Part shown: positions 1 through 60,243 of the stretch, in pieces
Numbering within the stretch: the stretch's first letter is position 1
Layout of the letters: every line of letters begins with the position of its first letter
From: Gracilaria domingensis
Taxonomy: Eukaryota > Rhodophyta > Florideophyceae > Gracilariales > Gracilariaceae
Assembly: GCA_022539475.1 (NCBI GenBank)
Contig: VCMS01000118.1
Coordinates: 62,001 to 126,000 of the forward strand
Direction of reading: 5' to 3'
Length of the DNA stretch: 64,000 bases
The notes under the pieces: generated by a model
Told to the model about the DNA's origin: nothing
Seen by the model: the letters and a program-made list of their open reading frames with translations, nothing else
Databases searched by the model: none
Translations under genes and position numbers: made by a program

Positions 1-689
1 TCATCTGCACCTGCAGCAGGAACAGGGCTCGCTTCATGCCCCTCCAGTTCAACGTCCTCATTATCGTTCGAAATTTCCATTCGTTCCCAAAGAGCATGAG
101 CAACTCGCTTTGCTTTCACTACCTCAGGAGGACATAGCGGTGATCCGGTTGGAACGGGTGTACGGTGCAGATTGTTAAACTTTCTGCGAATAGAATCTGC
201 AGATCTACCTGTTTCCGGGTATTTCCTACAATGCCGAACCGCCACTGAGTCCCACTCGTTAGGTCCGATCGGCAATATGTCTTCAATGCCCTTTAGAAAA
301 TGAAGGCATTCAGCGCTGGTGAAACCCAGTCCACGGCGATTCCGTGCGTTGGATCTTGCCCTCGCATTACCATTCGAAACTGTATTGGTTTTGCGCACTC
401 GATTTGCGGGACTAGGTCGCAAGATGCTGCGCGTGTTACCAGCAGCTCTCACAGGAAGTGTGGTCTGCCGCGTAAGAACCGGCGCAGGAGACTCATGCTC
501 TGCTTGCGGTGACATATCGCACGGTTGAGCTGGCCTACCGATACAGTCTCGGGACGGAGCGATTGGTGGCGTCGGGCTTATGGCGGGTGGGGAAGTTTGA
601 ACTTCGTCTTCATCGTCCGGAAACATTTGCGCGGCAGACGGCAACGCAGCCGAGTTCAAGGGTGGAAGCTCCGCCTCGCTGAAATCCAT
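1..689 (-). CDS. DUF6818-type Myb/SANT-like protein, C-terminus beyond the window
   Basis: An open minus-strand frame starts at the ATG at 689-687 and runs off the left edge after about 229 codons. Residues 1-110 are Pro/Ser/Arg-rich and look disordered (begins MDFSEAELPPL). From about residue 145 there is a compact domain with ILPIGPNEWDSVA, then RKYPETGRSADSIRRKFN, then RTPVPTGSPLCPPEV. This is the pattern I know from DUF6818 proteins: a GP-x-EW helix, an S-x-RRKF helix, and a PTG-x-P-x-CPPEV turn. The fold is Myb/trihelix-like and probably binds DNA, but no target is known. Such genes form large dispersed families in oomycetes and some algae. No stops or shifts are seen. The family call is from memory of the motif; the role is inference. 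Confidence 0.7.
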   Translation of the reverse strand, partial: MDFSEAELPPLNSAALPSAAQMFPDDEDEVQTSPPAISPTPPIAPSRDCIGRPAQPCDMSPQAEHESPAPVLTRQTTLPVRAAGNTRSILRPSPANRVRKTNTVSNGNARARSNARNRRGLGFTSAECLHFLKGIEDILPIGPNEWDSVAVRHCRKYPETGRSADSIRRKFNNLHRTPVPTGSPLCPPEVVKAKRVAHALWERMEISNDNEDVELEGHEASPVPAAGAD

Positions 690-1050
690 GGTAGGCCGGC
701 GAGGTTTGAGAGAACTGCAATCAAACCAATCCTGGGGGCGCACCAATGCGGGGAGGAGTGTAAAGGGGCAGACGGTATTTCTGTGCAAGCCCAGCACTTG
801 GAGTTCGTAAGCATTGCGGGTAGACTACATCGCACAGAGGGAACTGGCGCGGTCCCATTCGGTGCGAAACGAAACCACACATTCGGTTTTTGAGAGAAGG
901 CCGACACAAGATGCTCATTTGTTCGGAGCAGCACGCAGCTTCGTCGGTGCTCGAACGGAGAGCAAAACGGACGCGCAATGTCACGTCCGGCATCAAAACG
1001 TGACGTTTTGCTTCACGCAAAATGTGTTTTTCCCATTTTCGAATGTTCCC

Positions 1051-1088
1051 AGTGAGGGGCGTCCTTAACAAGTGTTGACGTTGCGTTC
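1051..1088 (+). repeat. terminal-repeat-like sequence, inverted partner at 32.1 kb
   Basis: About 35 bases containing CTTAACAAGTGTTGACGTTG match the reverse complement of 32080-32119 with only a handful of differences. The start (AGTGAGGGGCG here, AGTGTCAGGGCCG there) looks like a transposon tip. The family is unknown. The partner lies next to a Harbinger remnant. Confidence 0.5.
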
Positions 1089-1119
1089 AACGCGATCAAC
1101 GAACCTTGGAAACTGCGGA

Positions 1120-1143
1120 GGCCGCAGACAAAATTTGATTGGC
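1120..1143 (+). repeat. 24-bp CCAAT/GCGGCC unit (copy 1)
   Basis: This begins GGCCGCAGACAAAAT and ends GATTGGC. It matches the reverse complement of 24918-24941 at 23 of 24 positions and the reverse complement of 1845-1868 at about 20 of 24. Each copy carries an inverted CCAAT box next to a GGCCGC block. It may be a promoter module or a subterminal transposon repeat. Confidence 0.6.
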
Positions 1144-1742
1144 CGTAGAGCGGCCGCAACGACGCAAAAGTAAATATAGATCTATGACCTTTATAGAAAC
1201 ACAAAAAAACAACAAAACAAACATAGTGGAACACGGACACCATTTCATTGGATCCGAGCCGCGCATTCCAACTTCTCTGCTCAACGTGACTGTCACACTT
1301 CTGGATACCAGGCTTTCGTTCTCAGTTATACTAAATGCTTACTATGTAATTTCTTTATACTAAACCCATATCTTGCATAAAACACAATTTCCATAATGTC
1401 TTCAAATGCAGCGATATTAACAACATGCTTATCAGAGAAACAGTTTTTTTCTAAGTTCATCATTATACTTGTTCTCATAGAGCTTTCCTTATATATAATA
1501 AGTTATCGTGGTCTCAAAGCAACATGCTCCACTTCTTTCAGTACCTACGTTTTGGTAATCAATCATACCTTTTTTCTCAACTATTATTGGGAAATTGCCA
1601 AATGCCAATGCGTATCAACCAAAAAGTCCCAAATAAAATGGTTTAATTTTACATGTAACCTACTAATATTTACAAACCGTATGCACTCTTCGCAACAACG
1701 TTTTACTGTCTCAGCCAATAAAACCACATTTAAGACCCTATC

Positions 1743-1807
1743 AGGCCGCATGTGGCCTTTGCCAACCAATTGTATCGGTTTGGCGGCTTTAAGGCCCCAT
1801 GCGGCTC
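1743..1807. repeat. long imperfect foldback
   Basis: GCCGCATGTGGCCTT (1745-1759) pairs with AAGGCCCCATGCGGC (1791-1805), 14 of 15 positions. Inside it CCAACC pairs with GGTTTGG around a short AT loop. It is a strong hairpin in otherwise AT-rich DNA, in the style of a small foldback transposon. Confidence 0.6.
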
Positions 1808-1844
1808 CTGGCAGCCAATTGAACGTTTTTCCCGACGACAAGGA

Positions 1845-1868
1845 CCCAATCGTATTCTGTCTGCGGCC
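1845..1868 (-). repeat. CCAAT/GCGGCC unit (copy 2)
   Basis: CCAATCG...CTGTCTGCGGCC is inverted relative to 1120-1143 and in the same orientation as 24918-24941. With copy 1 it brackets about 0.75 kb of gene-free DNA. Confidence 0.5.
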
Positions 1869-2354
1869 TCTTCGATTGTTTTACTTCATTCAGTACCGTC
1901 TATAAGCACCAACGTCATCCTGTTTTTTTGTTATAACACAAGGTGATTGAGACATACATGTCTTCTCTCATTCCGTTTTTCAAAATTTAATTATGTTAGA
2001 CGTTGCCAACGGCATTTTTCCAAAATGATTTGGAATTTTTTGTATTGATCCCGACTCACGTTACCCTTGGTACATCACATGTAATGACTTTAACGTCTTG
2101 TTTTATCCCCTCATGGACGTAGTCGTTACGTCGAACGGTCATAAAGGTTTTATAACGAATCAATGCCATATCCAACGGCAAGAAACCGTAGATATCTCTG
2201 CTCCCCACTTTACATCTCTTCTAACGTACTACTTACCGTTAACAAAATTTTCTAGTAACGCTTCAAGTAATGTTCTCTATGATCGCGAACTGAGAACGAG
2301 ACCATACTCTTTGCTTTTATTTCTACTTAACGATTTAGACAACTCGAACTCGTC

Positions 2355-4181
2355 ATGCCAAATTGCAAAGTCGATATGATTGCTTCATATATATTTTCAT
2401 CGCCTCCAAACGAAAGAACATCTCTTAGACATACACTTATTAATAGATTGGAAACCATCGTCAATCTCGCAAATTTTTTGGAACATGTTGCGTATGAAAA
2501 GCCATATGGAGGATCAATTGCATTCGCAATCTATGCAAAATGTACAAAGAGAGGAGAAAAAGAGGCTCATCCATCGGCAAAAACATTTTGCTTGACGGGT
2601 CCCGAGCTTTCGATCTGCATTGAAGTAGACGACGTCGTCGACAGTGACCTTCCCTGAAACTGAAAGGAATATGAACAATGTATCCGTCCTATTCCTGTTT
2701 TGGATTCTGATTTGGATGAGGTGCAACCAAACCGGATGGAGCAAGACACCTTGAACATTCCGGATAGTTCGCTTCCAACCACAGCTTTAAATGAAGTCAA
2801 TCAAAGGACAGATTTTTCCCGTGGAGAAGTTCAGGAGACAAATGCTTCCTGTCAAAAAATTCGTGAGACAGATATGTCCCGTGCAGCTCATTCTGCACTT
2901 TATCCTAAATCTGGGGTGGTCACCACCGGAAGACATCCGCCTTTGATTCCATAGTCACATCCTTTTCTTAATCTCGTGCCATGTGAGCGGGATAGCCTTA
3001 ATGTTCGCCCAGCTACTATATCTTTCGGTTTACTAGCTAGGACTTTAAATATGGGTGGTGTCAAGAAGAAGAAAGCAGTTCAGAATACCTTCCGACTATC
3101 CAGCCATGCCGTTGCCACTTGTCTGTCATTACTTTTAGATGCAAGCTCAGTAACATTGCATTCCTGCAGCAAGAAACCGAGAACCATAGCTTCTGTGAAT
3201 GCTCGTGTGGGTGAAAAAATTGTGATAACTGTATTTCAAAAGGAAAAGGACAGAAGGAGAAAGAATGGAGGAAATGTAAACGGCATGAAATATACGACGT
3301 TGATTCCTACTCAACTGCAAAAGAAAAACGTGACCTTGGAATTTCCTTCTCTTGAGCTTGTGCGGAGCAAGACAGAACCTTACCAATTTCTGCGCCATAA
3401 ACGAATTTCGACCCACGTTTCGAAGGCAAGCAAGAACTCTAAAGAGACAAATATCGCACTATTATCATTTATGTTAATGAACGAAACTGTGAATACGAGC
3501 ATTCGGGAGGACATGGAGAAATTTGCATTCGAAGGACTTCAGAAATGCAGAGGGGTTTTAGATTGCAAAACAGAATGTATGAATCGGGCTCTATTCAAAA
3601 ATGGAATATATATAAGTGACGCTCATGATGAAGATCAAAAACTTGGTTTCGGCACAGTTGATCCTTTCGCCACTTACATATTGGGCAAAAGAATTCCATT
3701 ACACTCACTGTTAGTGAATTTCGAAAACTTGGTTAACCCATTGCTACTTGAAAGCTCGGAAAATCTAGGCATTAGTCAGTACCAGATCAAGAGGTATCCT
3801 GTAACTTGGAAACGAAGTGCAATTAGTCGTGTACTCGTGAAAAGCAAATTCTCAAAAGATCTAGGGACAGCAATTATGATACGAGAAACACTGGTAGAAG
3901 GTCCAGTTTCAGAGAACCACAATATGGATATCAGTTATGCATGTGAACTTTGTGACTTCAAGCTTTTGGAAGATCCAAAACATGACATTCCACCGAATGC
4001 TGGGACGGATATGTCTCGATCTGATACCTTGGGTATAACGTATCCATTTTCAGAATGGTACAGTTTGAGAAGCATTGCGCATCTGAGGAAGAAGCATTTT
4101 GAGAAAATGCCAATTACAGTATCAGACTTGTTGAAAAGTAGAGCGTTCATATGGCACAAAACTTATACCGCCAAAACGTAA
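2355..4181 (+). CDS. unknown protein of the KDZ/Pif1 cassette, interrupted
   Basis: One frame runs from the ATG at 2355 to the TAA at 4181, about 608 codons. It is broken by TGA at 2655 and 2661 and by TAG at 2952, with no frameshift. The uninterrupted part has its first ATG at 3051 (MGGVKKKKAVQNTF). No domain is recognised. The C-terminal third has a CELC pair and a HLRKKHFEKM stretch that could be part of a zinc-binding module. Two palindrome copies lie inside (2865, 4002), both read as D-M-S-R. It stands convergent to the Pif1-like gene and upstream of the transposase on the same strand, so I take it as an element gene. It is not a Helitron Rep protein: I find no HxH motif or paired catalytic Tyr. 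Confidence 0.5.
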
Positions 4182-4467
4182 TGATTCGAAAAGGTAAACA
4201 GAAACAAAAATTATAATTTAGAATTGGTTGTACTTGTTTACGAGCAACCGCCACATTATAGATATATCCGAGACATATATGTCTCAGATTCGGGATTCAC
4301 CAAATATAATTGGTATTATTGACGCACTTTCGTCAGGAAAAGTTTACGTAAAAGAGAAATATATCCCTACAAGAAAAGTAATTCTTCTCTTATCACTTGA
4401 AATGAAACTGTGGAAACCATACAACTCAGTTCTGAAAAGGCTCCTAGGATTTGCTACATGTTTGGCC

Positions 4468-5853
4468 CTAGCTTTCGCTTTCCGAAATTACCCTTCCTGG
4501 ATAATGCTTCTTAAGTTTCTCAATGTACTTCATATAGTCCTCAGCAGCGTTACTATATTGAATATGTTCTTTTGTGAGACCTTCCACCCATAATCCTCGT
4601 AATGATTTGCATCTTGAGAGGGCAACATACACCATACCATTCGGTTTCCACTGGCTAGGGATGAAGTCAAAAGCTACATTCTGTAGGGTTAGACCTTGGC
4701 ACTTGTGAATGGTCACGGCATATGCGGGTATTATTGGAAACTGCACTCGGGACGCCAAAATAGACGCATCCCTAGCACGTATTGAGAACGTTTCCTTCCT
4801 TAGAAAATGTTCATCGTACCCATCCTCAACCCTACACTTCAGATATTGTACATATCCTGATGGTCCAAGCTGAACTTCGGATACAATCAGCTTTTCTCCA
4901 GGAAGAAATGCCCCAGACTTTCTAGTTAACAACACAGCACCACCTATTTTGACCCTGACAACATCTGGCGTCGCATTTTGAAGCCTCTCTTTTAGCATTT
5001 GGCGAGAAACTTGACTCCTAGAACACATCGGGACATATATGTCTCGCGCAATGCAATCATACAATTTTCCAGACAACCGACTTAAAATCCAGTCGTTATA
5101 TTCGGAGACCTGTGAACGATACAGAAACAGCTTTGTGTGAGACCTAGTTGGTTTCAAGATTCCCTTACTTGTCCTATTTATGCAGTTGACGTCATCATCT
5201 GTAACCTTTCCTCGACCAATACGTTGAAGAATGGAAAAAAACTGTTTGTCATTCTGTTGTCTATGATTCGTGGAAAGCATAGATACAATGCCGGTCCCAA
5301 ACCCGCCGAAAGTAAGAGACCACGGACGGGAAAGATGAGCGTATCGATTTTCCGATGGGAGAGATTCGATTTGCTCCACAGGCCCCAATTGGAATATATC
5401 GCCCGGAAGAACTACTTGTCGGCCTCTAAATGGTAGAGCATAGTCCACATCATTTCGAGCTAAATATCTTAGTATCGCATCGATTGTGTCCAAAGTCTCT
5501 GAATTAAGCAAGAAAACTTCTTCGATAATTAGAACCTGAACCTGACGAATTTCACTCATTCTCCATTTGTTCTTCTTAATTTCTTCAAGAAGCTTCTCTT
5601 TCGTCAGGGTCCAGTTAGCATGAATACCAAAGACTGTACTCACTGTTCTTTCTCCAATTGGTCTTGAAGCTTGGTGAGTATGGGCATAGGCGACCACTAC
5701 AGGATACTCACCAATATGTTTTGAAGCGTACTGAAGCATAGATTGAACTAGAAGCGACTTTTTGCTTCCTGCACAGCCAAGAAGAGCAATGGATTTCCCA
5801 CTCATGAACGCCTCCATTGTGCGCCGTTGAAGAGGATCCAGAATATGGCTCAT
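4468..5853 (-). CDS. Pif1-like helicase, divergent Walker motifs
   Basis: An uninterrupted frame from the ATG at 5853 (MSHILDPLQRRTMEAF), about 461 codons; it extends a little further upstream without an ATG. It has the order of SF1B Pif1 helicases: Walker A region GCAGSKKSLL, Walker B region LIIEEVFLLN, motif III GDIFQLGPV, motif V IHKCQGLTL and motif VI VYVALSRCKSL. The family normally has GTGKS in Walker A and DE in Walker B. Here they are GSKKS and EE, so ATP hydrolysis may be weak or lost. It is the only long gene in the cassette with no stop, and all its Gln and Trp codons are standard. It lies on the opposite strand to its neighbours. Its role in the element (replication or excision of transposon DNA) is inference. 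Confidence 0.85.
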   Translation of the reverse strand: MSHILDPLQRRTMEAFMSGKSIALLGCAGSKKSLLVQSMLQYASKHIGEYPVVVAYAHTHQASRPIGERTVSTVFGIHANWTLTKEKLLEEIKKNKWRMSEIRQVQVLIIEEVFLLNSETLDTIDAILRYLARNDVDYALPFRGRQVVLPGDIFQLGPVEQIESLPSENRYAHLSRPWSLTFGGFGTGIVSMLSTNHRQQNDKQFFSILQRIGRGKVTDDDVNCINRTSKGILKPTRSHTKLFLYRSQVSEYNDWILSRLSGKLYDCIARDIYVPMCSRSQVSRQMLKERLQNATPDVVRVKIGGAVLLTRKSGAFLPGEKLIVSEVQLGPSGYVQYLKCRVEDGYDEHFLRKETFSIRARDASILASRVQFPIIPAYAVTIHKCQGLTLQNVAFDFIPSQWKPNGMVYVALSRCKSLRGLWVEGLTKEHIQYSNAAEDYMKYIEKLKKHYPGRVISESES

Positions 5854-6258
5854 GACTGTGTCGAGACAGGTATGTCTTATGGGTCGAAGGAATATTACGA
5901 ACACAAGTTCGTCAAACAAGTTCGTTAAGAGAGGAAGCAACAGAAGTTATTTCCATCCGTTTGTAGGTTGTGGGAAAGGATGGCTCTGCACGCTTTCTAC
6001 AACCTGTTTCTGAACCGAGCTCCCAAACGTGGATAGTTTACTGCAAGTGTTTTCAAATTTTGGCGCGAAGGTTTCCAATCCAGATCTGTTTGCCAGCAGT
6101 GCAGCAGTGGAAGCAAGGTTTCACTATTTCGCGTACCTTTACAGGACAGGTAAAGGCACCAAACGTACTACTTCGAATCTGCTGCGACGGAGACATCGGA
6201 AGAAGAAGCAAAACCATATCCTTCGTCTTCTCACTGCTTCCTTCTCTGGGCTACTTCC

Positions 6259-9200
6259 ATGGATGCAGTATGGACCGATTCTGAAATTCGTCGCATGAAC
6301 ATTGCGGTGAATCAGATAGAATTGAATACGGGAAGGAAGAATTTACCGAACGAATATTATACACTTCGATATCCCCCCATTGCGAATAATGATGGAACAG
6401 ACCAACTTCCGGACATATCTGTCTCAAATCGTCAATCTTGTGAAGAACTTCCCTGTTTCGGATTTGACCTTCAAACAATCAGTCAAATGAACACTGCTAT
6501 AAAAGAACTTAATCGGAACGAACAGGAACTACCGAAAGATGAAGAATTCATCGATGAAACTGTTCCCTTGACAAGCAATGATGAGGTGTTTACCTATCCA
6601 ACTCTGTTACAATCACGACCAGGCACAAAACATGGGAAAGGTGGGCGTCGTCACGCTTCTGGGGCTGTAGATCAGAGAGCCCAAATCCCCGCTTCTCTGA
6701 AGACGGTTGTGTGGAAATTTCTTTCTCACGCTTTAGGGGGCATCGAAAAGGCCATTGACAAGATTTCTGGAGGCTTGAGATGTAGATCTTTTGTCGTTTC
6801 TTTACCACTTGGATGGGAAAGAAACTTGAGGAATTATCTTGGAGAACTCTTGCGAAATGTAGATCGTGTCGCTGCCTCAATGTTTCAACTGGTTCCGAAC
6901 TGCCCAATGCTTTGCATCTGCACAAGAACATAGTTCTCACAGGTTGGAATTGATAAATGTAACGCAATGGAACGTCATGCTGCGTGCACATGGATATCAT
7001 TCGATGGTGTCATTCGTTGCACATGTATTGGACTGACTACATTTCGGATCCTTGGCACTGATGAACAACCAGAAGAGAACCAATGCACACATGTTAAAGG
7101 CTTGCACGGATTTCTGCAAGGTATAGCCAGTATTTGTGGGATCAGCTGCTCAGATGTTGGGCAACTTCTGGCCGAGATGTATAGAACTTTATTTGGATCT
7201 CACCATGAGACATATATGTCCCATTCCAATGCTCATTTTCTCTTCAATAATAGAATATGCGTACTGTCTTTTGCCTCAAAGGTTTCCGCCAAGGATGTGC
7301 TTTGCATGGTTCCTGTTCGATGCATGCGCCATGGGCAATACATATGTGCATTTTGTGACACAGCCTATCATGGAGGATGTGAACACACCCGAGTAGTTCA
7401 AACAGAAGTACAAGTTCGTAATGATGAACACAGCCACAATTTAAATGCCGAAAGTATGGCTAAAGAAGATGATGAGGTGTTCGGGACTCCGTTTTATACG
7501 AAGATTTTGTCCCATCTACCCTTACTACCAATCAGTTGCTCTAAATCGATACAGGTTGACCTGAAAGCATGCAAATTGGCATCTACTGGAACACCATTTC
7601 AAATACATTCACCTACACACTGCCCCAAATGTGGCTCTCCAAGACAGGAAACTTCGCGAAAAATATGGAAGGATGGGGTGCTCATGTGTACAAGAGGACC
7701 ATGTGCCCTTCATGTAGAAGAATTCATTTGTAGTAATCCAACATGTCGCTCAAAAATTCAACCAGAAGGAAGGGGACAATTTGTTTTCCTTTTGAACATG
7801 TGCACTGCTGGGACTCATGCGCTAGGAAATGGAACTTTAAACAGTCGTTTAAAACACTTTCATTCACAGGTGCAAGCCAACGTAAATGCTGGATACTTTG
7901 GCTTCGCTTCTGTTCCATGCAGATCCGTTAGAACCATCCAGGACATGTGTGTCCTGATGGTTAAGCTCATGACGATGGAACCAGATAAGAAACTATTTAG
8001 GTGTGACATCTGTGAGAAATCTTCTGAAACCATTCCGATCATATGCATCGACGGTATTCAATTGGGGTATTTGAAGAACAAACAAGTGAAGCTTAGGAAT
8101 ATATAACAAATATGTGAACCGCTTCCGCGCTCAATGACGAGGTCTAAGGGAAGCACATATCGACCACTAACCGGACTTATACGAAGGAAGACAGTGGTCA
8201 AATTGTTTCTGTCCACATTGAAAGGGAATATTGGGACTTGCACCAGAACAAATGTGAAAGATTTTGCCATGTGCATTCGTATTGTTTGTGACAATACTCT
8301 TCCTCATACATTTTGTACAGAATCTATATGCGGTAACACACCAAATGATACCTCAAATGATATTGGAAACTTTTGCCATTTGTTTTCACTAAGAGCTCTA
8401 GTGAACTCCTTCTTCGAGCCAGCTTCTCTTTTATACCGTTTTCTGCTACCACTTAATGATTTTATCTCTGGCGTTTCTGCGACCCTATTGGAAAGTTATG
8501 GAGCTTTTGGGTCGGATTCAAATTCTATTAGAAACCTTATTTCGAACATGATCGAATTGCTCCGAAGCGAATCTAGTCTACAGAACACCGGGATACCTTG
8601 GTCAAATTTATTGGGGTCCAATATAGGACATGATCGAAGGAAAGAGTTGTTTCAAATGTTTGCTATGTTCTTCACAGGTCTAGTATGCCAGTTTATTAGA
8701 AAATCTGATCTTTCCTCAGTTTGGCACCTGGGACATATATGTCTTTACTGGGACATGCATGCAATTCTTAACATGTTACAAAAGCCCGAAACACTTGTTA
8801 CTGCTTTCGAAGAGACGAGTATTCTCTCCACTTCACGTTTGATTCAAGCAGGAATACAGACAATTACCGAAATTGAGCGTCATGGATCTGTCGAAGGAGG
8901 AACAGAAATGCGATTTGCAATTGGTCGAATATTGCTAAGTTGCCACAAATGCGTGCAAACATTCTATAGGTATTACAAAGGTCCTCCTCGAAAAAGCTCG
9001 GCGTTTACATACGCAGAAGAATGGGGTTCTTAAAGCAAGAAAGAGCTCTTACAAAAGATGTGCATAAAGTATGCAGGTGGCATTGAGAGAAGTATATCAA
9101 GCTTGGATGAAGCAATGTGTACCGGATCATATTTTCCAGGAAGAGAACAAGTTCGACCTTTGCCATTCAATAATGATGAAATTGGAGAGTCCCAAATGGG

Positions 9201-9768
9201 GATCTTGGGTTTATGCTCAAAGCAATATTTTCAAAAGCAAAAAAGTTTTACACCTGGTGCTATGACAATTTCCTGTGCGTGTGCCAGCCCTATTACACTT
9301 GGAACAAAAGTTCTTTATCGTAATGAGGGCCCGAAAGTTGTACTGGACATGATTGTTTCTCGGTTTGCATAGATTCCGCGGTTTATTGTGTACGACTTTT
9401 CTTGTGGACTATTTAATTCCTGTGTCAACACTTTATAGTGGGCATTAGAGGATACAACTATTGTAAGTGACAAATTTCACATTGAAAACCATAAGAATTG
9501 CTCTCCTTCCTATAATCAAAAGGCGAATCTTGAACTGGATACAAAAAATACTGTTTCCCATGAACAGAGAAATAGTGGCATCAGAGTCATTGCAAGATCA
9601 TTGAGAAACGGAGGCCATGAGTATTATATTTCTTTGCTCGCCTATCAAGCATTGATTCAAAATATTAAGGCTAAAGCAAAGCTGACTGAGAAGTTTCGAA
9701 GCAGAGACTACTTTGTTTCAGAGCATGATTTAGAATGGTGTTATTTTCATTGTTTGAATATGGAATAA
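6259..9768 (+). pseudogene. KDZ-type transposase with Cys-rich (CxC) domain, five in-frame stops
   Basis: One frame runs from the ATG at 6259 to the TAA at 9766-9768, about 1169 codons. It is interrupted only by TAG at 6931, TAA at 8104, TAA at 9031, TAG at 9370 and TAG at 9436; there is no frameshift. Order of parts: an N-terminal region without known domain; a Cys cluster near 7.6-7.75 kb (HCPKCGSP, CTRGPC, CSNPTC); then CDICEKSSETIPIICIDG with the first Asp of the catalytic core (about 8.0 kb). After a helical insert come VYDFSCGLF, SDKFHIENHKNCSPSY and NTKNTVSHEQRNSGIR near 9.39-9.6 kb. This is the KDZ (Kyakuja-Dileera-Zisupton) signature: a YDF-x-C strand, an FH-x-x-NH-x-x-CS loop and a final EQ-x-NS helix. 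Five stops make it probably dead. Four palindrome copies lie inside it. Confidence 0.75.
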
Positions 9769-9996
9769 CTCTTTCGAACTATATGTTACATTTAAAAGAG
9801 AAATTATCGAGACATATATGTCTCGGTTGTTGACCACTTTATATTATTATCGTTTTTTAGGGTTTTCGAAAATTTTGTGCGACACTGCGAATCATCTTTT
9901 TTGCTAAGAATGCACCAAAACCTAACCGAGCACCTCCACCAGAATATAAACACAGCACGCCTTCTTGATAGCTCGAAACTTTCTTAGTGTTCTCGG
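9769..9996. other. AT-rich spacer, right edge of the cassette
   Basis: There is no gene. It contains a perfect copy of the 16-bp palindrome (9809-9824). The end of the transposon should lie in or near this stretch, but I see no clear terminal inverted repeat matching the left side. Confidence 0.4.
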
Positions 9997-11992
9997 ATGC
10001 TTCGTAACTAACGTCCTCGACAATTGTCGAATACTGGCGACAGCAGTTGCCAGCAACCCGTGCCTGATCGTCTTAGTCGGCCTCTAGATTCTTTTTTTTC
10101 CGTATCCGTGGGTGTGGCAAAGGGCCCATTCGCGCACTTCGCAAGCGCTGATTATACTCCTGATGTAGAAGACTTGATATCGGATCATCCGGCTGGTCCC
10201 TTATCAGTTGCCGCAGTCGCCTGCTTTGCGATCATCGCTAACGCTTCGTCTCAAGCACTGCCCTTATGAATAGCTGCGGACCCAGAACTGGACACTGTTT
10301 CTATTCCGCGTCAACTTTACTATCAGGAACGAGGACCTGCTTTGTCTGTATGGCTTCCCGAAACACGCAGCGACATAGTTAAGTGTGCCGGACTGGCTGT
10401 GTTGACCCCAGATAGCGTCTTGCGTGTGTTCCGGCAACGCTCTATAAGGTCGTCGGGCGCTCCGACATGTCAAGAACTTCGCGTGCTGGCTTCTCTGATT
10501 CAGTCTTCAGGCGTCGAAGATTGTTTGGCACTTGACGTCGTGCACGTTCCTAAAGCAAAGGCTTTGTTTGTTTTTGGTTCTCAGAATAGTGCTGCCATCG
10601 TGTCCTTGCGGGCAGCCCGTTTAGAAGTACGTCCCCTCCAGCAAAGTGTCCACAAATAATTTTCTCCCATGCGCTTCGGATCTGCACTTTAATCAGCTAT
10701 CCTCTCAATCAGCATCGGAATCGGTGGGAGAGATGAGAGCCGGGTACGGGGCATGGGGATACATGAAATCGTTTCTACTAACTAGGTCAAGGACTGTTCG
10801 GTGTTAGTGCGAGCTGGCGGTGAAGTTGAAAAATGGAACACTCGCGGACTGATATGGTCGTTTAACGTGTTTGACTTCATCCCAGGTCGTGACACCCGCA
10901 ATCGAGAACAAAGCAGTGGAATTACGAGTGATGGCACGATTGTTGTTGCTCTACAGACACCCTTACGAATTTCATCGTTTTCTCCCGACGCTGCATAAAA
11001 GCATTAAGGACGGATTATTAAAGTTGCAGAAAGATGCTGGTGGTTCGGATGAATTGGAAGTCTTAGAATCTGTGTCGTTCAGAGCAGATATGAGGCGCAT
11101 AATTACCTCCGTTGTCTCCAAGGTTCGTTGGATAGAAGGGAAGAGAACTATGAACTCTTCTCAAGTGACCAAGACGATATGGAATGCATTGAGAATTCGG
11201 TTTGTGATACTAGAAGCTCTCGTGGTGTTGTTGTCGATAAGCATCTGCGGAGTTCTTGATCGAGACTTGCCCGCAAGCTTTACATTCCCCGAGAGCCATT
11301 TACGAGGAACAATGCTCAAAAGCGGCGAATTTACTCACAAAAACATTTGTTCGGAACGCTTAACTTCATTGCTCTCGAAATATCTTAGGAAAGACCGTGA
11401 ACAGTTCCCAAATCTGTCTTGGATGCATTGGTCTTCAACTGGCTACTTTGGAGAGCGCATTAACTCACTTTTTAAACAGGTCCACTGTGTCAGCGTGCCC
11501 GAAAACATAGGCTCAAAAACAAGTTCATTCAGCCTATGCAGCATTGCGAAGCGGGCTCTGGAGGCAGTTAAGAACGAAGGTGAGCAATGTACCCAAGACC
11601 AGGGAGGCATGTTAGGTGTTATGATCGCTCGCTTGTTTATGATATCAGTTCAGGACGATTTCAGTCCAAATCATGACGCTCTAATGCACCGAGCAGATCT
11701 TGTACGTCATATACTAGAAAATTCGCCTGCTGACAGCGACAGCCTGGCAAAACGGGTTGTAGAAGCATTGCGCGTTGTCAAAGTATGTGAAACCATGGGG
11801 GACTTGACGGGGGTGGACTTAGGAGATTATGTCTGGAGACGATGTGTTGAGCTTCAAAGCGCGCTATGGATACCACTCGCTCAAAGCTTATCCGCGATTA
11901 GTGAAGTGAGGCTCCGTGAAAAACTCAAGAACACAACACTTTTCAAGGCTGTTCAAGAATGTGGACTAACAGCCAGTAGTAATGTGCTTTAG
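9997..11992 (+). CDS. propeller-plus-solenoid protein, possibly a nucleoporin of the Nup133/Nup155 type
   Basis: Frame 9997-10626 joins 10786-10866 through a clear intron (10627-10785) and continues in a new phase from about 10886 to the TAG at 11992. The first part has strand-rich repeats (AGLAVLTPDSVLRVFRQR, KALFVFGSQNSAAIVSL, SVLVRAGGEVEKW) like propeller blades; the rest is helical (RRIITSVVSKVRW, ALRIRFVILEALVVLL). That architecture and the VEKWNTRGLIWSFN stretch recall Nup133/Nup155 N-termini, but I cannot prove it. Oddities: in-frame TAA at 10009 and TGA at 10267, and a phase change at 10867-10885 that a 19-nt GT-AG segment would explain. The ATG at 9997 is tentative. Base composition is even and unlike the AT-rich cassette just upstream, so I read it as a host gene. 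Confidence 0.45.
10627..10785 (+). other. spliceosomal intron, 159 nt
   Basis: Donor GTACGT follows ...CGTTTAGAA, and the acceptor is TACTAACTAG just before GTCAAGGAC. Branch sequence and 3' site overlap as TACTAAC-TAG. Joining the flanks gives RAARLE-VKDCSVLV in phase 0. The intron contains stops in the exon frame, so splicing is needed. Confidence 0.7.
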
Positions 11993-15697: not shown

Positions 15698-15935
15698 TAT
15701 GCCCGCTTCTATCTGCTGTTGAGACCGAGAAATTTCTCAGAACTATCTGTCATTAGCTTTTCAATCCGATTCCTATATGTGGCAATTTTTTCTTAGTACT
15801 CCAATATCTTTTAAATGGAAATTACATGTCAAATTTTTTGGCTTGCCATCTCTCAATAGAAATTCAATATGTTACTGTTTTCTTCAATTAACAGAGTTCC
15901 TAAAGGATTCTTCTTGAAACGTGAATGAAATCTTA

Positions 15936-17885
15936 ATGACAGACGCACTCCAGTATTTCCGCCTGGGGAAACTGCGTTCCGAAGTGAGTGCGAGTACTCA
16001 GCGGACGACAGCGATTGAGGAAGAGTGTGAGCGACTATGGAGGGAGTTGGACGTTGTACGAACGGAGAACAAGGAAATGCGCACATCACTGCGCGAGGTC
16101 AAATCTGGGCATCCGGTGAGCGAAACGGAGCAAATGGCTGCTAACTTGAACATGCTGATTGCTGAGCTGGAGCGAATGTTGAGAACAGAGACCGAGAGGC
16201 GTAATGAAGTGTCGAACCTACTTGCTAACGCGGACAGAGAACATGATGAGTTGCGAGATGTGGTGAAGCGGTTACGCAAGGAAATAGATACAGCGGTTTC
16301 GGACCTGAAGGCTGCAAAAGAAGCAGTTCCCAACACTGAAGTGCGCAACCCCGTGATAAAAAGGAGTCTCTCTCGCAGTAGCCAGGACCAGCAACACGTC
16401 ATTGAGGAGGAGCGCGATGCGGCGATTCGTGAGTTGTACCGAGTTCGCAAGGGATTGAACAAGGAAACCTGCCTGCTGAAGAAGGAAAGGGCGGAGCTTG
16501 TTCAAAAGCTAGCAGATGGGCCATCAGAGGAAGCCTCCGTTGCCCTACGATCACAACTTTCAGCGTCAGAAGCTCAACGTGAGAAAGTCGAAGTTGAACT
16601 GGATTCAGTGAAGGGAGAAATCGAAGACGCCAAGAAGCAGCTGACTGCTGAACGAGAAGTGACAGCGGCAGAAGCTGGCAAGCTGAACGCTCTTCGAGAG
16701 ACTCTGAAGACAAATGAGGAAGAGCTTCGAGTGCTGACAACAAAGGCGGGAAGGATGGAAGCTTCTCTCTCTACTAATGAAGAAAAGAACCACATGAAGG
16801 TGCAGCAATTAGAGGACGAGAAGGAAAGCTTTCAAAAGCAAGTTGAAGCGGCGAGAAATGAGATTTTTGAAGCGCAGTCACGGATACGAGAGCGAGAAAA
16901 AAAGCTAAACGAACTTAGGCGGCAAGTGAACGAGCAAGTTGCTTAGCTGGAGACAGAGAAAGGGCGCACGGAGAGTGAGAGCACCGCTAAAAAGAAGGTG
17001 GAAGAGATGGTGGAAGTTTTGACGTCGAGAAATAGCTCACTAGCGTAGAAGCTTTCCGCAGAGAGCTCGGCACGTATATCAGCTGAGAAGCACGTGAGCG
17101 AAATGGAGTCGGACTTGAGGCGCGTCGGTCAAAGGGTGTTTGAGCTGGAATCGGTGGAGAAGAAGCTGCGCAGTGATGGAAAAGCAATGAGTGAGGAGAG
17201 GAAGACACTTCAAGCTGGAATGGATGAAGTAAGGACGTAGCTTGCTGTGATGGAACAAAGTTTATCAGAGAGCAAGAGTGAACTGGAGCGTAGTTTGCAG
17301 CGTTTGGGTGAATCAGAGAGCCCCAAGGCGCACTTGATAGGGGAAATGAAAGGGTTGAAGGCGAGAATCGCGGCTTCGGAATCAAGTCTAGAAGAGCTTC
17401 GCAGAAGTGTGCACGACACGAGAGATCAACTGAGCTCAGGGGAAGAAGCGAAGCGCTCTGTGAAGGCGAGCAGCACGTCGATGGTGCGACAACTGTCTGA
17501 GGAACGAGACGGTCTGGAGGACGAGAATCGGTCGCTGCAGTCGGAGCTGGAGGGTATGAAGGACGAGTTGACGCACCTGAAGAAGCTAAACTCGACGCTG
17601 CTGTCGACGGAGGACGCGGCGGAGCTGATGACGTCCAGAGACTGGGCGCTGTCCGACGTGCACTCGCTGACACGGGCGAACGAGGCGCTGCAGCACAGTC
17701 TGTTGAAGGTGCGGGAGGAGTCGGAGGGGGTGAAGAGCGAACGCAGCGCGGCGGCGAAACAGATGCGGTCGATGAGACAGGAAGTAGAGAGGGCGGAGGA
17801 GCAACTGAAGAGCAAGTGTGAAGAAGTTCAGTATGCTGACCCATGGCCAGGCGTCCGACCAACACCAAGACCATACAAGACATAA
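15936..17885 (+). CDS. long coiled-coil protein with three in-frame TAG codons
   Basis: From the ATG at 15936 (MTDALQYFRLGKLRSEVSAS) one frame runs to the TAA at 17883-17885, about 649 codons. It is almost all heptad-rich and Glu/Lys/Arg/Leu-rich, like myosin-tail, SMC or Golgi-tether rods, without a recognisable head. TAG interrupts it at 16944, 17046 and 17238. Each falls where the heptads run on (QVA-stop-LETEKG, SLA-stop-KLSAES, VRT-stop-LAVMEQ) and each is one C-to-T change from CAG. There are no frameshifts in nearly 2 kb, odd for an old pseudogene. A poly(A)-signal-like AATAAA sits just after the stop, and a degenerate copy of the 16-bp palindrome at 17906. Confidence 0.7.
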
Positions 17886-17905: not shown

Positions 17906-17921
17906 GAGACATATATGTTCC
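17906..17921. repeat. outlying 16-bp palindrome
   Basis: GAGACATATATGTTCC differs from the array consensus at one base. It lies 20 bases past the stop of the coiled-coil gene. Confidence 0.7.
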
Positions 17922-22991: not shown

Positions 22992-24434
22992 TTAAGACAT
23001 ATGTTGCAGTCGTTCTTCTAATGCAACTTTCATGTTGTAAAGCTTTTCTTTTGAGATATATTCCAGGTTAGGATGAACTCTTGATTTTGAGAGGCGTCTC
23101 GTACCGGAGTGTTTAGATTCTTTTTCAGCACGAAGCTTTTCCAGCTCACTTTTCAACTGTTCCATCTCTTTGAGCCACGTTTTCTCCTTCTCCTTGAACT
23201 CCTGCTTCATAGAGAGAATAACATCTTCACCTTTTCTGTTTTCGAGCTTAACACTAATAGGAGTTTTTGGATCGTCACTGGGATTGTTTCTCAGTTCAGC
23301 ACTGGTCTTGCTATAATCTCTTACTTTCCTTCGTTTCGGCTCTGGTGACTGAGTGTCTGTTTTAGCAGCAGAACTGCGCTTTTTCTTATGCGATTCTTGC
23401 AGGTCTTGGCTAACTTGCTTAGCTCTTTGACGACCTCCCGCAAGCTTCAACATAAATTCATCAAGATTTCTAGATTTAGCCGCCTTCACATATTGCGTGC
23501 ATAGCGGTGCTAACTTTAAACCGCCATTTTCTCCGACACAATGGTGTCTTAACCGCATTCTTTCCGCACAAGCAACAACTATTGAACACAACTGTTCCGA
23601 CGATAGTTCTCCGGCATACCCAATATGCGTATCTTTGAAATCCGGCATAAGTTGATGATTCTCCCAAAGAACGAGTATATCCAAAACAGATTTATGAGGT
23701 CTAAGATATGAAATAGGTTCAGACAGATATGTCTCAATTAGTCGCATGCATCCTAATAGTTGACGGTTTAAATGTCTTGGAGAAAGAGTTTTGTTGTAGA
23801 GAAAATGGTTTCGGTTGTGATCATCTCCTGAATCGTACTTGCCTTGCCCAAAGAAACGGTTTCAAAGAAACTCAAACCCACCATAAACCTTTTTATTCGA
23901 CGCGTACGGTTTCGGAACGACAGGATCGTCGTATACCAATGTTTGTAGAACAACAGCTTGATTTAAAGGCGAGCATGACTTGGGAGAAACGTCACGGGTG
24001 TTGGTAGCAACAGCAATATATCGTAGCGCTCTGTGTACTAAGCGTCTTGTACCTTCCAGCCATAGAGCGTCTTTTCGCGCCGACCGATGCATACACTTTA
24101 CGGCATCAAAAACGTCCAAGATTTTTTGCTTCGATACTTCGTGAGCATAGACAAGATGAGTCAGACAGTCCCTAGCTGCAACAACTCGATGATTGCCGCC
24201 AACAACATAACAAGGAAAGGTGATTGAAAAACCATTGACGCTGAAGAACGGTTCGGTGATTGTCACTGGTTCACTCTTTCGAAACAATTCGTGTAACATC
24301 TTGTTGCTTAACGACATTGCATTGAGCATATTGACGGGTCTGATGATTTTCTCGAATTGAGGAAGATGTCTTATGAGTTGCAACCGGCATCGCTTGTGGA
24401 GCGGTAAGACGTATTTTGCGTTTGACCATATCGG
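22992..24434 (-). CDS. protein with ParB/sulfiredoxin-like motif and coiled-coil basic tail, one in-frame TGA
   Basis: One frame of about 480 codons is open from 24434 to 22992 except for TGA at 23864-23862 (context FEFL-stop-NRFFGQG). The N-terminal part has VGGNHRVVAARD, like the GG-x-HR-x-x-A core of ParB/sulfiredoxin-fold proteins. The middle has no known domain. The tail has an NLS-like run (EPKRRKVRDY) and a Glu/Lys coiled coil (MEQLKSELEKLRAEKES). Bacterial ParB binds a 16-bp palindrome; that a 16-bp palindrome array lies in the same window, with one copy inside this gene (23720-23735, read as ETYLS), is suggestive only. The start codon is uncertain: the frame opens after a TAG at 24437-24435, and the first in-frame ATG lies inside the ORF. 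Confidence 0.45.
23720..23735. repeat. outlying 16-bp palindrome inside a gene
   Basis: CAGACAGATATGTCTC differs from the consensus at two positions. On the minus strand it is read as E-T-Y-L-S, the same phase as the copies at 4270 and 7207. Confidence 0.7.
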
Positions 24435-25239
24435 CTAGGACAGTTGTCATTGAGAGTTGAGTATTGCGATTTATGTGTGAGAGCAGTACAAGCTTCTGTC
24501 TTGAATTGTAGTGCAAAGATTAAGTGATGCTGAAAAGCGGAGCTGGCGTTAAGGCGGTTATGGTACTATCGTTGGGTTCAATGAGAAAGCTCAGTGATGA
24601 TGTGTCTAAGCTGATTTGATTTACGAAGCAGGAGGGAACACAAAACAATTGAAAAGTACAAATTATGGTTTGGTTTTTGTTTTACATTGAATGTAATATA
24701 CATCGCCTTCAACGAGACATTTTATGGCTCAATATGAGCGTCACATGGCTCAAATTGATCGTCACGGTGTGACCATTCCAATCTTAGTGGAATGACATGG
24801 TTTCCAGTTTTCCAGCATATGGCAAGATGAATGAGGCCGTAGTGTTTCGTTGGCAAATAGTATTGTACTTGCGGCTGTTGAGTAGCCAATAGTTTCGGTT
24901 CTGCGGCTCTTGTAGCAGCCAATCAGATTTTGTCTGCGGCCGCTACAGTTTCTTCCTTTGTGATCAACGGTTGATGAAGAGAAAGCAGCCATTCATTGGC
25001 CAATGAAACTTTTAAAAGTTTTAGCAAAAAGCTTTACTACTTTTATTAAAGACCCCAGAAAGAACCACGGTGTAATGCTAGCAAATGCATTGCGCACATT
25101 ACGCTCTGTGCGTCGCAACGAGATCTACTCTGTAGTGCAAACTCTGCACTATGCTCTCTTTGCTCTCGATCTATAATCCCGCCCCCCACATGTTGTGCAC
25201 TTTCTTGCGTTCCTTTCCTCCTTTCTTTCGTTCCCTAGA
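24435..25239. promoter_or_regulatory. divergent intergenic region with CCAAT/GCGGCC units
   Basis: Between a minus-strand and a plus-strand gene, 24830-24945 holds two tandem units of about 33 bases, each GCGGCT...AGCCAAT, ending in a third GCGGCC (24918-24941 is the best match to 1120-1143, inverted). CCAAT boxes in a divergent spacer suggest a bidirectional promoter. The alternative is subterminal repeats of a transposon end. Confidence 0.45.
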
Positions 25240-31055: not shown

Positions 31056-31600
31056 TCACTCAAAGCGATGAACAGAAGCCCCCCGAACGGAAGGTCTTCT
31101 CAAACATTTGTCTTTGATGATCTTCACCAATGCCTCCCTCTTTAACGAACGGCATTTTTCGTCCCCTTCGTTTGATCCAGAACCCACGTCAGCCCAGCGC
31201 TGATCTTTGCACGTTTTGTACCACGACCTCGCATCGTCACTCGCCTGGCATTCCTCATGGTTTGATATGTCCTTTACACTATTGCCACGATTCCCTACAC
31301 AGGAATTGTGCAGTTTCATGCACAAGGAAACAGTCCGACAGCGCACTGGGACATCGAAATGGATTGTAGCTTGTCGAATACCTCTTTGTTCATTCGAAAT
31401 GACTTCTTGAAAGACTGCGCATTGAGAGTAGGCTCCAAATTTTCGAATGATCTGGTGCGCCGCACTAGCGATGGCCGCCTAACTGCAACGGGCTTCTGGA
31501 TTTTTTGTGTCTTCAATATTGACACAGAGGTTTGCACTAAATCTAGTGTGACAGCGGCTTGCATAAAGATTAAATTAGGAGCCGTTTGGATTGCTACCAT
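31056..31600 (-). mobile_element. Harbinger/PIF transposase remnant, core deleted
   Basis: The minus strand keeps an N-terminal piece (SFKKSFRMNKEVFDKL, like the FRM-x-x-x-FD helix that precedes the Harbinger DDE core) and, directly after it in another frame, a C-terminal piece (CMKLHNSCVGNRG, the LHN motif after the last catalytic residue). The DDE core between them, normally about 200 residues, is gone. This is the shape of an internally deleted, non-autonomous copy. A terminal-repeat-like tip lies at 32080-32119. Confidence 0.5.
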
Positions 31601-32079
31601 GTTGAAAGTATTGAGATTGCAGTGTTATTATCTGTAACAAGAGCTGTTACATGTAGAGCGAAAGCACGAGAGCTTTGTAGAAGCACAGCGACAATATATC
31701 AGAAAGAAGGAGTGGAACTTGATTGCGTAGGGCTCTTTCTGTGTTCTACGTGCTCATCGGAAGTCTGGTTGATGGATGATGCTGTGTGGAGATTGCGGTT
31801 TTTGATCGAGAGCGCAGGTGCTAGCGATTGAATCGTCTTCGGCAGTGTGCACACTATGAATAAGACATTCGTGTTGATCGCCCTCTGGGCTTTGGGACGT
31901 AGGTACGAGTTGCTTTGTCGGTACGCAGATCACGGAGCAGTCTTTGGTGCTACGCTGGGAGCGAAAATGCAAAGTGTCTTGGCGATGCGCAGATCACGGG
32001 GCAGTCGTTGGCGATACGCAGACACGAAAGACATTAAATTACTCTACATGATTCTTTGAGGATCTCAAAGTATGCGTCA

Positions 32080-32119
32080 ACACAACGCAACGTCAATACT
32101 TGTTAAGAACGGCCCTGAC
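32080..32119 (-). repeat. terminal-repeat-like sequence, inverted partner at 1.05 kb
   Basis: Contains CGTCAATACTTGTTAAGAAC followed by GGCCCTGACACT. Read on the minus strand it starts AGTGTCAGGGCCG and points left towards the Harbinger remnant, whose right tip it may be. Confidence 0.5.
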
Positions 32120-32324
32120 ACTCAGAAAGAACCCAAACACACACACACAAAAACACGCTTTTACTGTGGTGTTCCGGGCTGAAAATGAACGGAGTTGACA
32201 GTGCCAGGCTTAATTCTGTACACCGACTGGTTCATTATCTTTCGATCTACCACCGCTGGAAAGCCCCAAGAGAGCTTTGGTGGCATTGCGGTTGCTGTCG
32301 ACTGCCCCGAAAACCTTTCGACGC

Positions 32325-34165: not shown

Positions 34166-34341
34166 TGCGCTTGGAACACATGCTGAGATGCCAGCAACAT
34201 GGTGGCAAGAACTTTGGCTTTACCATAAAGACTACCTCTGACAGTGAAGCGCAATTGCTGCGCGTCAATTCAAAGAGCTCGCGACGACGGCGCTCATAAA
34301 TTCAGGTGTACATAATATTGCCAAGTACGAAATTAAGCCTG

Positions 34342-36040: not shown

Positions 36041-36448
36041 ATGGCTCAGATTCATACCGGTTCCCGTTCTGTTCCTCTGCCTCCAACAGTACCTCTTGGT
36101 CAAGCCCTGGACGTAGGCGCGTGGAACGCTTCCTATCCTATGCCGACCGTGCCGGCAATTATAACTTAGATTCCGCGTAGCTTACTTATCAACCGTGATC
36201 CATTGCAGGACCCCCGATTGTATTCACGGGCACCTTGGTTCCATACCGTAGCGGTAAATGACGCCGCATTGTTGGACTCGTATGCCGAGAATGGTGTAGT
36301 CCCTGGTGACGTTCCAGTTGCGGTTGCCCAGTCGTGGGATTGGCGCGTGCGACTAGCGATACCTCTTGGTCATCTCCGCGTGAGACATGGTCAGACTCGT
36401 GACGACGAGAGAAGTAACTGTAGAGCAAACCCAAAAAAAGGGGGATGA
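36041..36448 (+). pseudogene. truncated tandem copy of the 37.6-39.1 kb gene
   Basis: From the ATG at 36041 (MAQIHTGSRSVPLPPT) the frame gives a Pro-rich head, then SRAPWFHTVAVNDAALLDSY and SWDWRVRLAIP. These align to the downstream gene (SRAPWFHPTAVNDEALIDWY, SRDWQTRIAVE). The upstream flank (SLLINRDPLQDPR) also aligns (SLLNRSPRRDG). Only about the first 80 residues of the shared domain remain, and the frame has one interruption. It is an old partial duplicate about 1.6 kb upstream, much diverged from the better copy. The family is not recognised. Confidence 0.6.
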
Positions 36449-47885: not shown

Positions 47886-47940
47886 GTTATAACTGTTTCA
47901 GCTGTTTTGGTGCACCAGCAATTATAACGCACACCTAGAA

Positions 47941-53040: not shown

Positions 53041-53049
53041 GTAACTGCC

Positions 53050-55083: not shown

Positions 55084-55138
55084 GTTATAACTGTTTCAGC
55101 TGTTTTGGTGCACCAGCAATTATAACGCACACCTAGAA

Positions 55139-60234: not shown

Positions 60235-60243
60235 GTAACTGCC

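What the first reader, a model, noticed from the sequence alone, without database searches (positions are those of the whole stretch)
1949..9824. A 16-bp palindrome is scattered at quasi-regular spacing through one transposon-like cassette, in all reading frames
Eleven copies of GRGACATATATGTCYC (three perfect) lie between 1949 and 9824, usually 700-900 bases apart, and only two elsewhere (17906, 23720). Copies inside genes are read in three different phases (ETYMS; DIYV or DISVS; GHICL), and others are non-coding, so the sequence is kept at DNA level. Sixteen bases is not a multiple of three, so simple insertion of a mobile palindrome into genes is unlikely. A plausible reading is a dispersed binding site for an element-encoded protein, acting in partitioning, silencing avoidance, target marking or transposase assembly. 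I know of no described KDZ element with this feature.
Basis: seen in the sequence. Interest (0 to 1): 0.85.

Follow-up and report, generated by a model that had tools for sequence, protein, structure and literature searches.

The report
Regular palindrome array in a transposon
A transposon-like block of genes carries about eleven copies of one short mirror-symmetric DNA word, spaced fairly evenly through genes and non-genes alike, which looks like a row of docking sites for a paired DNA-binding protein that coats or marks the whole element; the protein itself is not identified.

Summary
Ten palindromes within 3 mismatches of GRGACATATATGTCYC, plus a weaker eleventh at 7940, lie in window 1949-9824; shuffles of 1900-9900 give 0.12. 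The unit is an inverted repeat, RRGACA-N4-TGTCYY, with a fixed 4-bp spacer (10 of 11 GACA..TGTC pairs). GAC is invariant in 22 of 22 half-sites; preference extends to about 18 bp. Sites fall in all three codon phases and in non-coding DNA, and fixed protein sequence does not explain them. Spacing is more even than random (P 0.0001 with 11 sites, 0.004 with 10). A sharp score gap separates these sites, and 17906 and 23720, from the rest of the window. Best reading: an element-wide array of sites for a homodimeric DNA-binding protein, probably element-encoded, acting on chromatin or silencing across the element, as VANC does in Arabidopsis VANDALs. The dimer-site part is well supported by anatomy; the protein and function are inferred. 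The KDZ label was not confirmed (no Pfam match); the Pif1 helicase was. No relative was found in the collections I could scan, which hold no eukaryote genomes, so conservation between copies, the key test, was not possible.

The parts
1949..1964 (.). site 1 GAGACATACATGTCTT, non-coding left part
2865..2880 (.). site 2 GAGACAGATATGTCCC, in ORF A frame, codon phase 0
4002..4017 (.). site 3 GGGACGGATATGTCTC, in ORF A, codon phase 0
4270..4285 (.). site 4 GAGACATATATGTCTC, perfect palindrome between the convergent ends of ORF A and the Pif1 ORF
5030..5045 (.). site 5 GGGACATATATGTCTC, inside Pif1 ORF (minus strand), codon phase 1, from residue 301
5863..5878 (.). site 6 GAGACAGGTATGTCTT, N-terminal part of Pif1 ORF, codon phase 2, from residue 23
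6410..6425 (.). site 7 CGGACATATCTGTCTC, in transposase-like frame, codon phase 1
7207..7222 (.). site 8 GAGACATATATGTCCC, in transposase-like frame, codon phase 0
8730..8745 (.). site 10 GGGACATATATGTCTT, in transposase-like frame, codon phase 2
9809..9824 (.). site 11 GAGACATATATGTCTC, perfect palindrome about 40 bp after the transposase-like frame ends
17906..17921 (.). outlier site GAGACATATATGTTCC about 20 bp after the end of a coiled-coil frame
23720..23735 (.). outlier site CAGACAGATATGTCTC inside an unknown minus-strand frame (22995-23861), 2 kb from a Ulp1-like protease gene
2331..4178 (+). ORF A: one frame of unknown function with in-frame stops at 2655, 2661 and 2952; no Pfam hit
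4471..5946 (-). Pif1-like helicase ORF (PF05970, E 2e-17)

Best explanation
The palindromes are an element-wide array of binding sites for a homodimeric sequence-specific DNA-binding protein. Each subunit reads YRRGACAKA and two subunits sit at a fixed geometry (4-bp spacer). The sites are spread so that every base between the first and last site, genes included, lies within about 0.6 kb of a site. The protein is most likely encoded by the element (ORF A or the cysteine-rich part of the transposase-like protein are the candidates) and most likely acts on the element as a whole, by opening or shielding its chromatin against host silencing, as VANC proteins do for VANDAL transposons. Shown: the array, fixed spacer, symmetry, frame independence and even spacing. 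Inferred: binding by a dimer, that the protein is element-encoded, and anti-silencing as the function.
For: Far beyond chance and concentrated in the cassette. Strict spacer: GACA-N4-TGTC makes 10 of 11 pairs for N0-N15 in 1-10000. In a scan of 6811 half-site/spacer classes (one mismatch allowed, second Copia copy left out) this motif holds the top places (8, 7 and 7 copies in 8 kb) against 4 for the next independent class, which comes largely from Copia repeats. GAC in 22 of 22 and the following A in 21 of 22 half-sites, purines at the two bases before in 43 of 44 cells; 8 of 11 sites have unlike halves, as expected of two separately read half-sites (read). Score gap: 13 sites at 16.6 or more, next best in the window 10.0 (matrix trained on the 11 cassette sites, so 17906 and 23720 are the untrained ones). 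Synonymous-codon permutation keeping proteins fixed: 4 coding sites at <=1 mismatch against 0.45 expected, 0 of 3000 reach it; exact matches 2, reached by 7 of 3000; <=3 mismatches 7, reached by 1 of 3000. Even spacing, CV 0.317 against 0.926. Precedent: VANC21 binds motifs enriched in its own element; loss of non-CG methylation spreads over the whole element, CG loss stays local (PMC5735166, outline and sections 7-9).
Against: No DNA-binding domain was recognised in any cassette frame and both structure models are uninformative (pLDDT 29.0 and 35.8). Only one copy of the element was seen, so selection on the sites between copies is untested. The genes look decayed (five in-frame stops in the transposase-like frame, three in ORF A). 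VANC21 targets are asymmetric, mainly in non-coding DNA and often in tandem repeats, unlike these. Two sites outside the cassette exceed chance (2 against 0.04), so a host-wide role is not excluded. Even spacing is weaker without the weak site 7940 (P 0.004). By mismatch-tolerant 10-mer counts one A/G-rich word elsewhere ties with the motif (11 in 8 kb).
Confidence: 0.4

Rival explanations
1. The sites are operators or roadblocks for an element-encoded repressor that limits its own transcription, as stoperators do in cluster A mycobacteriophages.
For: Dispersed sites inside and between genes; the L5 repressor is predicted to bind more than twenty sites throughout the phage genome (PMC9283540, passages).
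Against: Stoperators are asymmetric, correlate with the direction of transcription and sit in short intergenic spaces; these sites are symmetric and 8 of 11 lie inside frames. The 207-bp interval 5947-6153 between the divergent frames has no site, though one would be expected there only about 0.3 times, so this is weak.
Confidence: 0.13
2. The sites load a ParB/KorB-like or viral-E2-like tethering protein that keeps an extrachromosomal or replicating form of the element, or pairs and condenses it.
For: Dimer-type sites dispersed over a mobile DNA; KorB acts at a distance from OB sites on plasmid RK2 (PMC11790492, passages). A Pif1 helicase hints at element-linked replication.
Against: No ParB-like domain in the cassette frames; no evidence of an extrachromosomal form was available; the cassette sits among other transposons and host-like genes.
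Confidence: 0.12
3. The sites are internal transposase-binding sites for assembly of the transposition complex.
For: Site 11 lies near the right edge of the low-GC block and sites 1 and 11 are the best inverted match between the two flanks searched, though any two palindromes would be.
Against: Known transposase sites cluster at the ends (recalled); these run evenly through the middle, and site 1 is about 0.9 kb inside the left edge of the low-GC block. No terminal inverted repeat or boundary was found (ungapped search), though two fungal Kyakuja families also lack one (PMC12730594, passages).
Confidence: 0.12
4. A host factor recognises the palindrome; the array exists because the element exploits it, or because the host marks the element for silencing.
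For: Two sites outside the cassette also exceed chance, one just after a coiled-coil frame and one inside another frame.
Against: At <=2 mismatches density outside is 2 in 54.1 kb against 9 in 8.0 kb; a host mark for silencing would be expected to be lost by the element (inference).
Confidence: 0.15
5. A tiny mobile palindrome inserted repeatedly, or the repeats are relics without function.
For: About 18 bp of preferred sequence keeps frame in any phase and has no stop codon. In two of the three Pif1 alignments shown (two near-identical chains) the helicase has seven extra residues at site 5030.
Against: No flanking direct repeats beyond chance for units of 16, 18, 20 or 22 bp; sites differ from each other; even spacing; the third Pif1 alignment has only a one-residue gap at site 5030.
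Confidence: 0.06
6. An RNA hairpin (6-bp stem, 4-nt loop) in the transcripts is the conserved thing.
For: Any such palindrome can form a hairpin; site 7940 pairs fully with both outer pairs changed.
Against: On the sense strand 5 of 8 coding sites lose a pair; three sites are outside the frames.
Confidence: 0.02

Closest known systems
VANC / VANDAL anti-silencing system of Arabidopsis (VANC21 motif YAGTATTAY)
   Same: A short DNA motif highly enriched in one transposon family and rare in others, many copies per element, effect extending over the whole element (PMC5735166 sections 7-9).
   Different: [quoted passage not shown] here it is palindromic, evenly spread, 8 of 11 inside frames. No VANC-like protein identified.
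Stoperators of cluster A mycobacteriophages
   Same: Element-encoded repressor with many dispersed sites (PMC9283540 passages).
   Different: Asymmetric, monomer-bound, oriented with transcription, intergenic; prokaryotic.
KorB OB sites of plasmid RK2
   Same: Operator sites from which a dimeric protein acts at a distance on a mobile DNA (PMC11790492 passages); that the sites are scattered over the plasmid is recalled.
   Different: Bacterial ParB-family sliding clamp; no ParB domain found here.
KDZ (Kyakuja-Dileera-Zisupton) transposons
   Same: Large elements with long transposases that can carry accessory genes (PMC12477816 passages); two Kyakuja families lack terminal inverted repeats (PMC12730594 passages).
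   Different: No KDZ Pfam match here. In PMC12730594 the one passage with 'palindrom' concerns ends of TET genes; PMC12477816 was searched only for KDZ, Zisupton and helicase. So whether KDZ elements elsewhere have such arrays is not known from my reading.

Membership tests
KDZ transposons | KDZ transposase domain (Pfam) | tested here: not met
   No Pfam match at E<=1 for the read-through frame; four pieces at E<=10 gave only sub-cut-off matches to unrelated families, best Zn_ribbon_8 and MtxA_IG-like at 0.19. HMMER can miss diverged members; KDZ-like residues (YDFSCGL..DKFHIENH..C) are recalled, not tested.
KDZ transposons | 7- or 8-bp target site duplication at element ends | tested here: inconclusive
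   No terminal repeat or boundary could be placed (25 of 86 inverted pairs listed; ungapped flank search); TSDs not determinable.
VANC-type anti-silencing system | motif concentrated in one element family, rare elsewhere | tested here: inconclusive
   True within 64 kb; no genome held.
VANC-type anti-silencing system | VANC protein (DUF1985/DUF287) encoded by the element | tested here: not met
   No such Pfam hit in cassette frames.
VANC-type anti-silencing system | motifs mainly in non-coding DNA, often in tandem arrays | tested here: not met
   8 of 11 sites in frames, dispersed singly.
VANC-type anti-silencing system | loss of DNA methylation on binding | not testable with these tools
   needs methylome and protein expression
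Stoperator system | asymmetric site oriented with transcription | tested here: not met
   sites are inverted repeats
ParB/parS or KorB-like system | ParB-like protein in the element | tested here: not met
   no such Pfam hit
Pif1 helicase family | PIF1 domain | tested here: met
   PF05970 E 2e-17; Pif1 structures, best E 4.4e-30. Walker A reads GCAGSKKS, which departs from the usual GxxGxGKS (recalled).

The most novel reading that the evidence does not exclude
A eukaryotic DNA transposon that has written a regularly spaced, codon-phase-independent array of dimer sites into its own genes, so that one element-encoded protein coats the whole element and keeps it open to transcription or replication: an anti-silencing or self-marking system unlike VANC in site symmetry, spacing and use of coding DNA.
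Probability: 0.3. Interest if true: 0.82.

Novelty: new variant of a known kind. Interest (0 to 1): 0.62.

Why it matters
Element-internal binding arrays with a known protein are worked out in few transposons (my understanding; VANC is the case I could read). An array that runs through coding DNA at even spacing would mean that selection on the element acts on site density along its whole length, and would give a clean, sequence-defined handle (one 16-18-bp word) to find the binding protein and to test how transposons outside flowering plants resist or attract silencing. If it is a host site instead, it would point to a sequence-specific transposon-recognition factor.

Tried and rejected
Arrays in other elements: exact 8-10-mer enrichment in 8-kb windows found none at P below 1e-6 outside the cassette and the Copia region (top four words per window). 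With one mismatch allowed (Copia stretch 51.2-62.2 kb left out, low-complexity words filtered, first 31 rows seen), words elsewhere also cluster: TTCAAAGAGA 11 copies in 8 kb (a tie with the motif by raw count), GTTTGGAAGA 9, TTTCGTTTCC 9, ACGACTGCGC 8 (all within 31411-37469) (two of them looked at with one related word). None of these passes, and I did not take them further.

Terminal inverted repeats of the cassette: none convincing in the lists seen. Helical or nucleosomal phasing of the sites: 11 periods tried, smallest P 0.077. RNA hairpin: disfavoured. Insertion with target duplication: not supported.

Relatives: four cassette proteins or segments gave no relative in IMG/VR and one segment (6934-8103) none in the GTDB genome collection; these tools find close relatives only and the collections hold no eukaryote genomes. 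Exact palindrome scans: 6 viral stretches for the strict word, 19 including those for the degenerate word, and 55 bacterial or archaeal stretches for the strict word (about 60 expected by my arithmetic for 257 billion bases of equal composition). In the 74 stretches held, 578117 bases, two hold three sites at <=3 mismatches and none holds four.

Papers: the three exact palindrome strings gave one listing, on a yeast polymerase subunit, not opened; 'KDZ transpos' with Pif1 and helicase gave none; 'dispersed palindrom' with transposable element, binding site and coding region gave one listing, a duck genome, not opened; KDZ with red alga gave one (passages read); 68 papers hold a KDZ name, 30 listed. 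The founding KDZ paper was not held. These few searches do not establish that nothing is in print.
Full report
What is there. The window looks eukaryotic: Copia elements in tandem, a Transposase_21 gene, a DDE_1 gene, a Ulp1-like protease, a copper amine oxidase and a cytochrome b561. No genome is held for it. The stretch in question is a block of lower G+C (36-45% in 500-base steps from 1001 to 10000, against 52-57% just left and 49-52% in the first kilobase to the right, where it then falls back to 42-46%). It holds three long frames: ORF A (2331-4178, +), a Pif1-like helicase (4471-5946, -) and a 1204-codon transposase-like frame (6154-9765, +).

The palindromes. Shuffling the 1900-9900 stretch 200 times gives at most 2, mean 0.12. 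At two mismatches or fewer there are 9 against 0.00. In the 54.1 kb to the right there are 2 (17906, 23720) against 0.04, so these two are probably real relatives of the sites as well; the 1.9 kb to the left has none. Requiring only RRGACA-N4-TGTCYY adds an eleventh site at 7940.

Architecture. For GACA followed at any distance from 0 to 15 by TGTC, the first 10 kb has 11 pairs, 10 of them with a gap of exactly 4. Treating each of the 11 sites as two half-sites, GAC is invariant in 22 of 22, the next A is present in 21 of 22, the two bases before are purines in 43 of 44 cells, and the base before those is C or T in 20 of 22. The two halves of a site differ in 8 of 11 sites (read). The dinucleotide at the outer edge is CG or TG in 16 of 22, against 31 of 135 at isolated RRGACA hexamers elsewhere in the window. 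The unit is therefore best written YRRGACAKA and its mirror, about 18 bp. A symmetric weight matrix scores 13 places in the window at 16.6 or more (the 11 sites plus 17906 and 23720); the next is 10.0. The matrix was trained on the 11 sites, so the gap, not the scores, is the point: there are almost no half-decayed sites.

DNA-level constraint. Eight sites lie in the three frames, in codon phases 0 (3 sites), 1 (3) and 2 (2); three are outside. Permuting synonymous codons within each frame, so that proteins stay fixed, leaves 0.45 sites at one mismatch or fewer on average against 4 observed, and none of 3000 permutations reaches that; for exact matches (2 observed) 7 of 3000 reach it, and at three mismatches (7 observed, mean 2.7) 1 of 3000. 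A hairpin in the transcript is an unlikely target, because 5 of the 8 coding sites lose a pair on the sense strand.

Spacing. With 11 sites the gaps have a coefficient of variation of 0.317 against 0.926 for random placement between the same ends (P 0.0001; 20000 simulations); with the ten strict sites it is 0.411 and P is 0.004. No helical or nucleosomal period was significant (11 tried). The 207-bp interval between the divergent Pif1 and transposase-like frames (5947-6153) has no site; the nearest are 5863 and 6410. That is expected by chance in so short an interval and says little.

Is it unique in the window? In a scan of 6-base half-sites and spacers 0-12 with one mismatch (6811 classes with a match, second Copia copy left out) the motif stands first with 8, 7 and 7 copies per 8 kb in its three registers; the next independent class has 4 and comes largely from Copia repeats. 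No other element has such an array by exact k-mer enrichment. By mismatch-tolerant 10-mer counts, one A/G-rich word ties and three others reach 8 or 9; told under Tried and rejected.

What it most likely is. A fixed-spacer inverted repeat whose halves vary separately is what a homodimer site looks like. An even row of such sites through genes and spacers of one mobile element fits a protein that acts on the element as a whole better than one that regulates a promoter or assembles at the ends. The nearest worked example that I read is VANC21 of Arabidopsis VANDAL21, whose motif is enriched in its own element and whose presence goes with loss of non-CG methylation across the element and of CG methylation locally (PMC5735166, outline and sections 7, 8 and 9). 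I therefore put anti-silencing or chromatin opening by an element-encoded dimer first, at 0.4, with host recognition, transcription roadblock, tethering or partition, and transpososome assembly as rivals. That the sites bind a dimer at all is inference from anatomy, which I hold at about 0.85; that the protein is element-encoded, about 0.6.

What is not settled. The KDZ label: no Pfam KDZ match to the transposase-like frame or pieces, although some residues look KDZ-like from memory. Two fungal Kyakuja families lack terminal inverted repeats (PMC12730594, passages), so the lack of one here does not argue against KDZ; giant KDZ elements occur in a brown and a green alga (PMC12477816, passages). 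Structure models of ORF A and of the C-terminal 681 residues of the transposase-like frame were useless (pLDDT 29.0 and 35.8, one sequence each). The transposase-like frame has five in-frame stops (TAG 6931, TAA 8104, TAA 9031, TAG 9370, TAG 9436) and ORF A three (TGA 2655, TGA 2661, TAG 2952), with no frameshift, so this copy may be dead; the sites could then be inherited from an active past. With one copy, selection on the sites cannot be measured.

Relatives were sought in IMG/VR with four cassette proteins or segments and in GTDB genomes with one, none found; neither collection is meant to hold eukaryote genomes. Exact palindromes in GTDB occur at about the chance number, and in the 74 stretches fetched from both collections none holds four or more sites.

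Noticed in passing
6154-9765, 2331-4178, 15918-17882: Three long frames keep one reading frame over 1204, 616 and 655 codons yet contain in-frame stops (TAG and TAA; TGA and TAG; TAG only) and no frameshift; each stop could be a C-to-T change, which is untested. CpG observed/expected is 0.83 in the cassette against 1.11 and 1.03 in its flanks and 0.90-1.10 in the rest of the window, which would fit a cytosine-directed mutation process.
   Followed up: partly
site edges, e.g. 9808-9825: The outer edge of the half-sites is CG or TG in 16 of 22; TG and CA are deamination products of CG, so the ancestral word may have been CGAGACATATATGTCTCG with a CpG at each end.
   Followed up: partly
1120-1142 (-), 1846-1868 (+), 24919-24941 (+): A 23-bp motif CCAATCNNATTNTGTCTGCGGCC occurs three times (none in shuffles; the pattern was drawn from these copies), twice as an inverted pair about 700 bp apart beside the cassette; a second mobile element or a promoter block.
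   Followed up: no
1055-1087 and 32084-32116: A 33-bp inverted match, 91% identical, between the left edge of the cassette and a region near a DDE_1 gene.
   Followed up: no
47422-62275: Copia elements in tandem: 47422-55083 and 54620-62275 match over 7664 bp at 99.75%, with internal direct repeats at about 773-bp spacing.
   Followed up: no
31411-37469: ACGACTGCGC with up to one mismatch occurs 8 times, all within 6 kb around a DDE_1 transposase gene (Copia stretch left out); no exact word there passes.
   Followed up: partly
L007-L061: 16 of 55 exact GAGACATATATGTCTC stretches in the GTDB collection come from Psychrobacillus, Planococcus, Planomicrobium, Bacillus, Peribacillus or Metabacillus, which may be a conserved bacterial operator with the same word; viral contig L065 carries three related palindromes, GGGACATATATGTCCC among them.
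   Followed up: no
4471-5946: The Pif1-like helicase has GCAGSKKS where Walker A is usually GxxGxGKS (recalled), so it may be inactive or diverged.
   Followed up: no
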